From Moniliella sp. 'wahieum' (lineage: Eukaryota; Basidiomycota; Moniliellomycetes; Moniliellales; Moniliellaceae): 64,000 nt of DNA. The DNA lies in the NCBI GenBank assembly GCA_003971905.1, contig RSEE01000008.1, positions 806,001 through 870,000 on the forward strand. Direction: 5' to 3'. Position numbers and translations under genes: made by a program. Of this stretch, positions 7,642 to 12,747 are shown piece by piece (the stretch's first letter is position 1; each line of letters opens with the position of its first letter). Under the pieces are notes generated by a model that was given only the letters and a program-made list of their open reading frames with translations, did not search any database and had not been told where the DNA came from.

Positions 7642-10600
7642 TTATATTAACCCCTTGTGGCCGTCGCTTGCACACCACTCACAACCTAGAATTAGTAGCT
7701 GCCAACAAACCGTCAGTACCAAGTCATCGCCACTTTTCCCAGAAAGCACATACAGTCGCGCTGCGATCCCCAAGGCCCCGAGTTCCTGGAACAGAAGTTT
7801 GGCCGCGTAGGGATGTAAACTTGCGACACCTCAGTCCGGTTTTTGCACGACCGGCACTCAAACGTTTCCCTTCTTGAGGTTGGCAATCGCCGTCAGGCCA
7901 CAAATGTCGCACACGTGCAGACGGTAGGCATCCGACGCATCAAACATACGTTCCTTGAGGAACGACGCAATGCCATGCGAAATCATACAGTCCCGCTCCA
8001 TCTCTCCGAATCGAAGACCACCTCCGCGCCACGACCCTCAACCGGCTGACGGGTTAGGATTTGTACAGGCCCACGCGCACGCGAATGGATCTTGTCATCC
8101 ACCATGTGCTTGAGGCGCTGGTAGTACGTCGGGCCCAGGTAGACTTGCGCCTGCAGTTTGCGGCCGGTGTGGCCATTGTACATCACCTCCAGCCCACGTT
8201 TGTGGAAACCAAGCTCACTCAGGAGCGCCGATACGGCCTCGACGTCAGCTCGGTAACGGCGTAGCATCGCCCTCATTCCCCGACAGCGTGGCTACCTTGG
8301 ACAAGAGGCATTCCACCAAGTGTCCAATGGTCATACGCGACGGAATGGCGTGCGGGTTGATGATAATGTCGGGCGTGATGCCATCAGCGCTAAAGGGCAT
8401 GTCCTCTTGCCGGTAAGTAATCCCAATCGTACCTTTCTGACCGTGGCGCGAAGCAAACTTGTCACCCGTCTGGGGCACACGAGTACTGCGCACGCGCACC
8501 TTGACAAACCGCTGGCTGTGGTCGTTGCTCCGTCAAAAGCACTTGGTCCACAATCCCATTCTCTGTACTCTTGAGCGGCGTCGACACGTCCCGTTTCGTA
8601 TGCGTCGACACACGCAGCCCAAGCTCCTCGCTGTCCGTCGGCAGCGGCGCCGTCTTGCCAATGATAATGTCACCCCCGAAACGCGAGTGCCGGGGGAAAT
8701 GAGACCGTCCGAGTCAATTTTGTCATACGTGCCATGCTTCATACGCAGTGTTGTCTCCCGCGTCGGCTTCTCAAACATCTCCAACTGGATCACGCCCATC
8801 TTCTTTTCCATGTCCGTGTAGCAGCGGTAGTAGAGCGAACGGAACAGACCACGGTCAATCGACGATTGATTCATAATCACCGAGTCTTCCTGGTTGTACC
8901 CCGAGTAGCACAAATCGCCACAATCGCGTTCTGGCCAGCTGGAAGCTCACGGAAACGAAGGTGCTCCATCGAACGCGTCGTAGCCAATGGCTTCTGGGGT
9001 AGTAGAGGATGTTGGCCATGGTGTCCATGCGCATCTGGTAGTTGGTCAGGTACACCCCCATAGCCTGCTTGCCCATGGCTGACTGGTACGTGTTACGCGG
9101 AGACTGGTTGTGGTCGGGGAAGGGGATGATACTGGCACAGATACCCAGAATCATGGCGGGATGGATCTCACAGTGCGTCCACGTTTTGGGCGCAAAGAAT
9201 TGCGTCGAGGTCAACCGAGCAGAAGGGTCCATGCCCTCCTCCGTTCCCTCGCCACCCCGACGAGCGTTGAAACCTTCGGGATCAGCGTTGTAATCGCGCG
9301 AGTTCTTCAGGTCCCAGGGGCCCATACAGATCAGCGCTGTCTCCTCCTCGTCGGCGTCCAGGTACTCGATCAGGCCATTCTCCACCATATCCTCCCACCG
9401 GAAGGCCTTCCCTCATCGTTCATCCCGTTGTTCAACCACTCAGCATGGTACCGCTTGACCCGTAGGACCGAGTCCTCGACAATAAACAACGGCCGTAACA
9501 CGCGCCCACCGTCCGTGTAGAGTCGCAGTTCTTTCTCACGAATGTCATGCACCATGCTCACCTCGTTCGAAATCTCGTTCCGGCGACGCATCATACGCAC
9601 GAAGTCCACCAGCATAGTCGCGCTCGTTGTGTGCCGAGCCAAACGCCATTGACAAATACCTTGGTAGCGCGATTATTGGCGACTTGCATGTCCTCGAGCG
9701 AAAGCAACGAGTACTCATGCAAGAATTGGACGATTGGGGACGATGCCGAACCGACCGAAATGGTCGACATGAGACTGAGGTTCTTGACCAGACCACAGGC
9801 TTGTCCCTCGGGCGTCTCGGCGGGGCAGTTGTGGCTAACGAGGCTGTTGGCAAAGAACGAATGGTTGGCCGACTCGGTAGTGAAGTCAAACACCGCCTCC
9901 GGCTCCACTTCCTCCACCGACTCGATCGGGCACCAGACAAACCCTTCGGCTTCAACCGCTCGCAAGCTCTGGAACTTCTCCCACGACATGAAGCTTGGTG
10001 TAGAAGACCCATGACCACTGCGCAGCAGGCGAGAGAACGCCCGTCCCATGATCGAACTGGAAACTGGCTCCGTCTCGATCCGAGCACGTTTCGCAAAGTG
10101 CGCTTGCGACTTGAGGTATTGAACGGGGAGCGCACTCCGCCGCGTCTTAGCTGCACAGTAGCGATAACCCACATGCTCGTGGAACGCAACCAAGTTGCCT
10201 GCCCTTTGTGTAAGGTGCACTTCTTCTCCCTGGGGGGCAGCTTTGACCCCGACATCGGAAAGGAGGACTGCGATTTGTCCAGCCAACTCCGTAACGAGAG
10301 GAGCCATGCAAGGCTTCCACGCCCGAGTAGAACACATGCGGATCGTGTCTCCTTTGGCACCAAAAATACCCGCAAGGAACTCGCGCTTGACGAGGACAGG
10401 GGCGTTGAGGAGCCAAGGAGGGAGGAGGGTGCCGGCACTTATAGCAACGAGGAAAGCCTCAGCCGCTGAGGGCAGCAGATCGGGGCTGCCCTCGATGGCG
10501 GGGAGACCGAGGGTACCAAGGTCCGAGTTGACCGCAGCAACATCAGCCGCATCGCTGAGCGCCAACCTCCGTCCCTGAACACCAGAACGAGCACCAAGCA

Positions 10601-12747
10601 GGCGGGCAGTAGCCAGAACCTGGGGCAGCGAGAGGTCGGTGTCGACCAAACCACATTGCGAAAGGGCCAGGGCCTCCACCATGGAGGGGGCAAGGCCAGT
10701 GAGCTGGGTGCGCGCAAGACGCAACGTAAATGGCGGGGGGGGAAGTACTTAGATTGCGGGGAAACGAGGATCATATCTGTGCCGGCCTGCAGTTGACCGA
10801 CTTTGGTCCACGAGGGTGAGAGCGGGTTCTGTGCCGCACGAAGAGGATGCTCGGGAGTGGCTTTGATCACCCTTCCGTCCGTCAAAGTCACCTTAAGAAG
10901 ACGCTCAGGCATCTTGCGGAACCAATGGTGGATGCCGCTCCGCTCAATCTCCAGCGACGACGGCTTAATCGTCGCCACCTCTTTGCCGTCGGACAGGTCT
11001 GCGATGCGCGCCACATCCATTCCGTTGCCCAGTACCACCTCCGTATCCGCCGTGACACAAACCATACCCCAATGGGTGTTGTGCAGCTGCCGTGGCTTGG
11101 CAATCTTTCCATCTCGTCCAATCGGGGTGTTGCACCGCCGCAAGTGGGACAAGGTGGAGGAGAAGGTGTACCGGTTAAGCACTTGCGACACACCAGCGCG
11201 TGCAGACATGAACATTTTTGGTCGCCCCAGTTGCCCGTCGCAACAGAGTACTTTAGGCCATTGGTAATGGTCGACGCCTTGACAGCTTGGGTAATGTGGA
11301 AATCCTTCTTCTCCTCCACGCACTTTTGGAGATGGCGGTAGATATCGCGCGTAAGCTTGCGGAAAAGCATGCGGAAAAGGCCTGCCAACAAAGGCCCAGC
11401 CATGTCGAGACGCTTCTTGCCGAAGTGGTCACGGTCATCAATTTCGCGCCGCTCGAGGGCAGTGAGTAGGAGACGATGAATCATGTACCCAAGAAGTAGG
11501 CCTTCTTGGTGTTACTCCCCTCAGACATGGAGATATGCGGCAGCATCTTCTGCAGAATCTCCTGCGCGTAGTGGCGACGTCCACGCGCCAGACCAGTGAC
11601 CGTGCCACGTCGACCAATCCAGTGCATTCTCCCGATCTTGGATGCTGAATGCCTCTTCAATACAGGGCTTGAGCATCTCAAGCATCTGCGTGTCGTTGGG
11701 ATCGTAGCAAATGTGCTGGAGGATTTCACGATCGGGGACAATGCCGAGCGCACGAAACACAATCACGATCGGCACGCCTTGATGTAAGGCAAGGTAGCAC
11801 GGATCACACTCCCACTGTTACCCTTGTCGCCCGAACGGGCAAACATTTTGACCTGCATTGTGCTCACCGTCTTGCCTCCCGTCTCAACCGCACTGCGAAT
11901 CTCAGCGAGGTAGTTGACTGGCGAAGGGGCTGACTTGGAGAAGACATATACATGGTTTGCCGCCATCCTCTCTTGGGCAATCAGCACCTTTTCAGACCCA
12001 TTGATGATGAAGTATCCACCCGAGTCGCAGGGACACTCATCCTTGGCATACTTTTGGTTGTCGTCCATGTTGGTCAAACGACAAACGTAGACTGAAGCAT
12101 GATGGGCACTTTGCCAATGAAGACCTTCTGCACCTCGGTGGCCGCGCCACGCTCCGCTGGCTCCCATGTATCATCCCATCCTCCACCTTGAGGTACTTGC
12201 GCTGCGTCACATCAAGGAAGATGGGCGCGGCATACGTCAGGTTACGCAGGCGGGCATCCTGAGGGAAAAGCGGACCGGTGGATCCATCGTCCTCCGTCTG
12301 CTTGGGGAGCGAGTGAGATTTGGCCAAAGACGATCTCATACCGAATCTGCGCAAGAGTCAGCATGATAGGAAGGAAGGAGAGACGGCATCGGGACCGGAA
12401 GGGGAGTAAAAATACGTACGGTCCTGTCGTCAATTTCGCCATTGTACTGCTTGGCTTGCTCGAGGGTCAGCTGGCCTACTTCCTGGACGAGCTCCTGCAT
12501 GGTGGTGCCGAGGAAATCGTTGAACGAGTCGAGCTGCTGACGGACAAGACCGCGCGAGTCGAAGAAGGAGCGGATAATGTCCCATGAATCCTGCTGCCTC
12601 AGCTCCTCCTCCTGGGGGTCGTCGTTGGCCAGGGGGTACTCGTCAGCCTTGTCGAGGTACGAGTCGTAGTCCTTGGCTCCGTCTGAGGGGGGGCGGGGGG
12701 TCAGTCAGCATGGGCGGCAGCAGGAACGCGCGGAAGGACGTACCCAT
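7642..12747 (-). CDS. RPB2: RNA polymerase II second-largest subunit, intein-containing
   Basis: Catalytic-core subunit of nuclear RNA polymerase II. The start is a 4-nt coding exon (ATGG, 12744-12747), a 61-bp intron (12683-12743), then [18 protein letters not shown] second intron lies near 12349-12420 between GEIDDRT and [12 protein letters not shown]. Hallmarks in order: [54 protein letters not shown] (split by the intein), [57 protein letters not shown] and the C-terminal zinc site with CxxC-type pairs (VCDICG, CRSCKN) before YIP. At least eight frame changes are scattered through the host parts, all of the one-base indel kind seen in neighbouring genes. The last residues after AARLY are uncertain, so the stop may lie anywhere from about 7720 to 7642. 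Confidence 0.93.
9828..11059 (-). mobile_element. Intein in RPB2 with LAGLIDADG-like endonuclease region
   Basis: A protein-splicing element of about 410 residues interrupts RPB2 exactly between HNTHWGMV and CPAETPEGQ. Residue 1 is Cys ([13 protein letters not shown], block A). Block B is ATPEHP with its conserved His. Block F is [16 protein letters not shown]. Block G ends SLVSHN followed by Cys+1 of the host, so all splicing residues (Cys1, TxxH, terminal His-Asn, Cys+1) are present. The centre is too long for a mini-intein. It shows two degenerate LAGLIDADG-like motifs, [12 protein letters not shown] (about 10569-10623) and [10 protein letters not shown] (about 10349-10381), and a [14 protein letters not shown] segment (about 10150-10190) of the sort I recall in eukaryotic nuclear inteins. 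The span of 1232 nt is not a multiple of three. One frame change lies near a run of C at about 10735-10742 (minus strand), probably a homopolymer error. Confidence 0.9.

What the first reader, a model, noticed from the sequence alone, without database searches (positions are those of the whole stretch)
9828..11059. Intein in the RNA polymerase II subunit RPB2
RPB2 is split exactly at [13 protein letters not shown] by a Cys1-to-Asn element with intact splicing motifs (Cys1, TPEHP, HN|C). I know RPB2 inteins mainly from chytrids and green algae, while Prp8 inteins are the common nuclear inteins of basidiomycetes. If the host is a basidiomycete, this is an unusual placement and a possible horizontal transfer. 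The target is among the most conserved parts of RPB2.
Basis: partly seen in the sequence, partly recalled or inferred. Interest (0 to 1): 0.88.

Follow-up and report, generated by a model that had tools for sequence, protein, structure and literature searches.

The report
Splicing intein inside fungal RPB2
A basidiomycete fungus carries, inside its gene for a core part of RNA polymerase II, a self-removing protein insert whose nearest known relatives beyond one sister species sit at the same spot in very distantly related fungi; its DNA-cutting part looks dead but its self-splicing part looks intact.

Summary
On the minus strand, 9828-11059 interrupts RPB2 exactly at [13 protein letters not shown] with a Cys1...HN|Cys intein. 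This is the known RPB2-c site: Batrachochytrium has its 488-aa intein at the same bond. The frame is broken once inside the insert but 16 times in the exteins, so this looks like assembly noise, not decay. Both haplotypes carry the intein and no intein-free RPB2 was found, so it presumably splices. The endonuclease half keeps a LAGLIDADG-like fold but lost both catalytic Asp (Gln, Lys), so homing is probably dead.

By its RPB2 the host is a basidiomycete (Ustilaginomycotina, unnamed; not Tilletia or Thecaphora by identity). RNA polymerase inteins are in print for Ustilaginomycotina; the Tilletia ones I examined sit at another site and are not detectably related. Beyond one unnamed sister species, the nearest inteins are in Kickxellales RPB2 and RPC2-type genes (41-49% identity to the sister species' intein), then chytrids (36-37%). 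All 119 other listed extein relatives lack it. Horizontal spread is favoured but not proven, since branch order is unresolved. New member of a known kind.

The parts
9828..11059 (-). RPB2-c intein (whole insert, one frame break inside)
   Evidence: Cys1 to terminal Asn, exact borders HWGMV|C...[10 protein letters not shown]; homologous inteins at the same bond
10736..11059 (-). First frame piece: N-terminal splicing domain (P0001)
   Evidence: NCBIfam TIGR01445 1.8e-10, Pfam PF14890 2.8e-7 below cut-off
11057..11059 (-). Cys1 codon (block A)
   Evidence: translation
10844..10858 (-). Block B TPEHP
   Evidence: translation; alignment
9828..10742 (-). Second frame piece: endonuclease half and C-terminal splicing domain (P0002)
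   Evidence: AlphaFold2 model with PI-SceI as best PDB match
10572..10607 (-). Endonuclease block C ([12 protein letters not shown]), Gln where the catalytic Asp is expected
   Evidence: alignment with 46 homologues
10344..10388 (-). Endonuclease block E ([15 protein letters not shown]), Lys where the catalytic Asp is expected
9828..9995 (-). C-terminal splicing domain with blocks F and G ([22 protein letters not shown])
   Evidence: NCBIfam TIGR01443 0.0033, over its cut-off
9825..9827 (-). Cys+1 codon of the C-extein
11060..12704 (-). RPB2 N-extein region, several frame breaks; 5' limit approximate
7747..9827 (-). RPB2 C-extein region, several frame breaks; uninterrupted at [12 protein letters not shown]

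Best explanation
A large intein at the RPB2-c site of the only RPB2 gene found in an Ustilaginomycotina basidiomycete, present on both haplotypes. RPB2 is made as a precursor. Cys1 takes over the peptide bond after Val, the N-extein moves to Cys+1 of CPAETPEG, the terminal Asn (helped by the penultimate His) cyclises and releases the intein, and native [13 protein letters not shown] is left. The central LAGLIDADG-type endonuclease keeps its fold but lost both catalytic Asp, so the intein no longer homes and persists because it splices and sits where imprecise loss would kill RPB2. Shown here: the insert, borders, motifs, homologues at the same bond, two alleles, no empty RPB2 found. Inferred: that splicing occurs, that the endonuclease is inactive, and that the frame break is an assembly error.
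For: Exact borders and motifs; both intein ends above NCBIfam cut-offs; homologous inteins at the same bond in 46 of 86 hits examined by pattern, among them B. dendrobatidis RPB2-c of the published size, 488 aa; 119 of 119 other listed extein relatives uninterrupted; both haplotypes carry it; no other RPB2 in the assembly, 31 of 31 candidates scored; splicing ends 82% identical to the sister species against 50% in the middle; endonuclease-type model with Gln and Lys at the catalytic positions.
Against: The reading frame is broken once in the window copy and 7 times in the other allele, and no reads were seen. Pfam scores are below cut-off. Best Foldseek match is E 2.9e-3 with TM 0.33, none under 1e-3, and the C-terminal 80 residues of the model are of low confidence. 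No RNA or protein data.
Confidence: 0.92

Rival explanations
1. Origin by horizontal transfer: the intein entered the ancestor of this basidiomycete and its sister species P0006 from another lineage (Kickxellomycotina or an unsampled relative) and later lost homing. This concerns origin and is compatible with the best explanation.
For: 119 of 119 other listed extein relatives are empty at the site; relative depth of the basidiomycete-Kickxellales split, with chytrids as yardstick, 0.69 (0.61-0.77) in the intein against 1.08 (1.02-1.15) in the extein; host-to-P0006 yardstick 0.70 against 0.19; trees join basidiomycetes with Kickxellales, 94/98, beside C. javaensis 81/82.
Against: Mycoemilia-to-Coemansia yardstick points the other way, 0.61 against 0.75. 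The splicing columns alone put Kickxellales with chytrids and leave basidiomycetes outside (93, with a long-branch warning). AU tests reject no order, p 0.12 to 0.23. The chytrid inteins may themselves be transferred, which would spoil that yardstick.
Confidence: 0.68
2. Origin by descent: the RPB2-c intein was in an early fungal ancestor and was lost in nearly all lineages, surviving in chytrids, Kickxellales and this basidiomycete lineage.
For: An order chytrids, Kickxellales, basidiomycetes is not rejected; Mycoemilia-to-Coemansia yardstick; Goodwin 2006 argues for ancient eukaryotic inteins (abstract).
Against: Needs a loss in each of the many empty lineages, while on the 36-row extein tree three gains suffice; chytrid-based relative depth.
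Confidence: 0.3
3. A spliceosomal intron or host sequence rather than an intein.
For: None found.
Against: Intein motifs at both ends; homologous coding inserts at the same bond in other species; empty in close relatives.
Confidence: 0.02
4. A dead RPB2 copy with a decaying intein.
For: Frame breaks in both alleles.
Against: Exteins are broken at least as densely as the intein in the window; gaps differ between the two alleles; no other RPB2 was found in the assembly.
Confidence: 0.04

Closest known systems
Bde RPB2-c intein, Batrachochytrium dendrobatidis (Goodwin, Butler and Poulter 2006, PMC1635734)
   Same: Same bond [13 protein letters not shown], homologous over the whole intein, Cys1 and HN|C; both endonuclease Asp lost (Ala, Asn)
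   Different: 36-37% identity to the sister-species intein; 488 aa against about 411; chytrid host
Kickxellales RPB2 and RPC2-type inteins (Coemansia, Mycoemilia; sequence records, order placement recalled)
   Same: Same bond; nearest relatives beyond P0006, 41-49% identity to the P0006 intein; Asp at both endonuclease positions in only 1 of 13 aligned
   Different: Very distant hosts; also in the paralogue RPC2, which is empty at this site in the window's genome at all four loci
P0006 (unnamed Logan record)
   Same: Sister species by extein (91% over host columns), same site, same lost Asp positions
   Different: Intein only 54-56% identical in the second half, 80% in the first
Tilletia and Salmacisia RPB2 inteins (PMC10849329)
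   Same: RPB2 inteins of Ustilaginomycotina
   Different: In the Tilletia proteins seen here the site is [12 protein letters not shown] and the intein ends GN; no significant similarity, best E 0.11 for the host pieces. For Salmacisia the paper gives a site between two primers; that this is the same site rests on primer sequences that I recall
Unplaced metagenomic RPB2 inteins (probably giant viruses)
   Same: Same bond in 29 aligned rows
   Different: 21-30% identity where most of the intein aligned; both Asp kept in 22 of 29; viral origin not confirmed

Membership tests
Intein, class 1 splicing type | Cys1, block B Thr and His, terminal Asn with penultimate His, Cys+1 | tested here: met
Intein, class 1 splicing type | Profile match at both ends | tested here: met
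   NCBIfam over both cut-offs; Pfam below its cut-off
Intein, class 1 splicing type | Absent from homologues of the host protein | tested here: met
   119 of 119 other listed extein relatives are empty
Intein, class 1 splicing type | Protein splicing observed | not testable with these tools
   no expression data
Intein, class 1 splicing type | One open frame through the insert | tested here: inconclusive
   One break in the window, 7 in the other allele, 16 and 9 in the exteins covered; read as assembly noise, no reads seen
RPB2-c allele group | Insertion between HWG[LM]V and CPAETPEG | tested here: met
RPB2-c allele group | Closest relatives are inteins of the same site | tested here: met
   The 17 hits and the fungal clade (100/100); includes RPC2-type genes at the paralogous site
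Active LAGLIDADG homing endonuclease | Acidic catalytic residue in both motifs | tested here: not met
   Gln and Lys
LAGLIDADG fold | Structural match to known members | tested here: met
   PI-SceI first, then other intein and I-DmoI structures; TM 0.33 to the query, no match under E 1e-3
Tilletia-type RPB2 intein | Insertion at [12 protein letters not shown] and sequence similarity | tested here: not met
   Window RPB2 is uninterrupted there; best E 0.11 against five Tilletia-type inteins

The most novel reading that the evidence does not exclude
One mobile intein family targets the fork motif CP[AS][ED]TPEG shared by RPB2 and RPC2. It has spread among Kickxellomycotina, chytrids, unplaced (probably giant-virus) polymerases and, by transfer between phyla, an early-branching Ustilaginomycotina lineage, where it is now locked in as a splicing-only passenger in the sole RPB2 gene.
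Probability: 0.45. Interest if true: 0.65.

Novelty: new member of a known kind. Interest (0 to 1): 0.46.

Why it matters
It extends the RPB2-c intein to a basidiomycete, as far as I could check, and joins it in one family with Kickxellales RPB2 and RPC2-type inteins. That gives a well-sampled case for asking how nuclear inteins cross phyla and jump between paralogous genes. RPB2 is also a common fungal marker, so such inserts can disturb amplicons and annotation (the Salmacisia paper makes this point for its own inteins).

Tried and rejected
Intron or host sequence: rejected. Pseudogene: held unlikely. Host in Tilletia or Thecaphora: rejected by RPB2 identity (74-76%, against 96% in two Tilletia pairs). 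Moniliellomycetes is my guess from the early branch, untested. A ribosomal RNA search to name the host did not complete. A first tblastn identity table ran through frame breaks and was replaced. A PDB sequence search with the second frame piece found nothing relevant; with the N-extein frame it found Pol II subunits and, weakly (E 0.005), the Pho RadA intein. Searching viral contigs for three metagenomic relatives found none (close relatives only are reached), so 'giant virus' stays a guess. Searching the assembly for the intein or its splicing domain elsewhere gave only the two RPB2 alleles, at a sensitivity reduced by frame breaks. An intein-free RPB2 copy was looked for and not found.
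Full report
What is there. RPB2 lies on the minus strand, roughly 7747-12704, with frame breaks throughout. At 11059 the conserved LHNTHWGMV is followed by [13 protein letters not shown]..., and at 9828 ...[13 protein letters not shown] is followed by [17 protein letters not shown]. NCBIfam recognises both intein ends above its cut-offs; Pfam recognises them below its cut-off. The insert is 1232 bp, so one frame break lies inside it.

Is the break real? Mapped on P0006, the window copy has 16 frame changes in 3,271 bp of extein and 1 in the intein; the second copy on contig C23 has 9 in the exteins covered and 7 in the intein. The two intein alleles differ by 14 substitutions and 17 gap events over 1,211 aligned bp; the 268 bp of flank compared had 1 of each (alignment, counts). 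Four stretches of C23 that I fetched (39.6 kb) are collinear with the window, at 88-98% in the matched blocks (window 367-20756, 40025-49985 and 54136-63890), so C23 is most likely the other haplotype; the stretches between were not fetched. Breaks that hit an essential gene everywhere, differently in each allele, are best read as assembly indels. This is inference: no reads were seen.

Only RPB2? Searching the assembly (69.5 Mb, 223 contigs) with an intein-free RPB2 gave RPB2 on C8 and C23 only, with 31 of 31 candidates scored. The other hits were RPC2-like (C5, C27, C3, C61) and two loci that are probably RPA2 by elimination (C154, C72) (in one search 29 of 39 candidates were scored). The intein itself was found only in those two alleles. 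An organism whose only RPB2 carries an insert in the fork domain (where Goodwin 2006 places the Batrachochytrium site; section read) must remove it.

Site. B. dendrobatidis RPB2 (P0144) has an intein of 488 aa at the same bond, and the published Bde RPB2-c intein is 488 aa (table read). The same paper places Bde RPB2-c and Ddi RPC2 ten alignment columns apart, which fits the two cysteines of [11 protein letters not shown]. So this is the RPB2-c site.

Relatives. Search with the host's second half gave 17 hits: P0006 (unnamed, 56%), 15 Coemansia or Mycoemilia proteins (38-44%; their order, Kickxellales, is recalled) and P0022 (27%). Search with the P0006 intein gave 86: P0006 itself, the same 15 (41-49%), Phlyctochytrium (37%), two B. 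dendrobatidis proteins (36-37%) and 67 proteins of unnamed organisms, most with polymerase domains (21-30% identity where most of the intein aligned; four at 38-39% over a quarter of it). Both borders were found by pattern in 46 of the 86. Two kinds of protein carry it in Coemansia and in B. dendrobatidis: RPB2 (CPAETPEG) and an RPC2-type (QWGM[LI]|CP[AS]DTPEG). The two inteins of Coemansia RSA 1933, and those of B. dendrobatidis, are almost identical. In the window's genome all four RPC2 loci are uninterrupted there.

Host. Extein identity over the host columns: P0006 91%, P0024 83%, Thecaphora frezii 76%, Tilletia 74-75%, Ustilaginales 72-73%, other basidiomycetes 70-73%, Basidiobolus and Calcarisporiella 69%, chytrids 66%, Kickxellales 59-65%; two Tilletia pairs are 96%. 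The quick tree of 36 rows places host and P0006 together (SH-aLRT 100), with P0024 (99), inside an Ustilaginomycotina set of 17 rows (100). All 119 proteins other than P0006 listed are uninterrupted at the site; these are the best 120 of 7,989 hits, not a full survey.

Endonuclease. The second frame piece was modelled (mean pLDDT 81, the last 80 residues poor) and its best PDB match is PI-SceI (probability 1.00, E 2.9e-3, TM 0.33), followed by related intein and I-DmoI structures; no match is under E 1e-3. The catalytic positions are Gln and Lys in the host and Gln and Ser in P0006. Asp stands at both in 2 of 18 fungal rows (Phlyctochytrium; Coemansia aciculifera RPC2-type) and in 22 of 29 non-fungal rows. 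So the host copy probably cannot home. The splicing ends are 82% identical between host and P0006 (134 of 164), the middle 50% (121 of 242), as expected if splicing alone is selected.

Origin. For transfer: the patchy distribution, and a relative depth of the basidiomycete-Kickxellales split of 0.69 (0.61-0.77) in the intein against 1.08 (1.02-1.15) in the extein, with chytrids as yardstick; this fails if the chytrid inteins were themselves transferred. Host to P0006 as yardstick points the same way (0.70 against 0.19) but could mean faster intein evolution. Mycoemilia to Coemansia points the other way (0.61 against 0.75). Trees: basidiomycetes with Kickxellales 94/98 and beside C. javaensis 81/82 in the fungal set, but outside Kickxellales plus chytrids on the splicing columns alone (93, with a long-branch warning). 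The five AU tests gave p between 0.12 and 0.23, so no order is rejected. I hold transfer at about 0.68 and descent with loss at about 0.3; the donor is open.

Known literature. Green 2018 (passages) lists RNA polymerase inteins in Ustilaginomycotina and Agaricomycotina, without sites in the passages seen, and names Tilletia indica and T. walkeri as carriers of inteins; some of these could lie at this site. The Salmacisia paper (passages and one section) reports RPB2 and RPB2-like inteins between two primer sites. In the four named Tilletia RPB2 proteins (and unnamed P0039) I see the intein at [12 protein letters not shown], ending GN, with no significant match to the host pieces (best E 0.11); the window's RPB2 is uninterrupted there. 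Four answered paper searches showed no report of a site-c intein in a basidiomycete. Further searches failed or met the cap, so whether the Kickxellales and RPC2 cases are in print is unchecked.

Verdict. A genuine, probably splicing-competent, homing-dead intein at a known site, in a phylum new for that site as far as I could check: a new member of a known kind, of moderate interest.

Noticed in passing
L007-L018 (contigs C5, C27, C3, C61 of the window's genome): RPC2 occurs at four loci: two allele pairs (about 97-98% within a pair, mostly 86-89% between pairs), as after an old duplication or hybridisation, while RPB2 is single. The C3/C61 copy is out of frame just upstream of the fork motif in both alleles (or has an intron there).
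   Followed up: partly
P0008, P0010, P0011, P0015 (Coemansia) and P0145 (B. dendrobatidis): RPC2-type proteins carry the same intein family at the site paralogous to RPB2-c, nearly identical to the RPB2 intein in Coemansia RSA 1933 and in B. dendrobatidis: recent jumps or conversion between paralogues.
   Followed up: partly
P0020 (Mycoemilia scoparia RPB2, 2428 aa): Three inserts in one RPB2: at site c, at [14 protein letters not shown] and at [13 protein letters not shown].
   Followed up: no
P0201 (unnamed metagenomic RPB2): An intein similar to the site-c family (30% over 508 columns) sits near NTYQ while its CPAETPEG is uninterrupted: a possible jump to a second site in the same gene.
   Followed up: no
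window 6500-7260: A ribosomal protein uL2-like gene (name recalled) is frame-broken in the same way as RPB2: the whole assembly seems to carry many single-base indels.
   Followed up: no
window 53914-53990, 55203-55243, 13746-13779: Short tandem arrays, nothing unusual.
   Followed up: no
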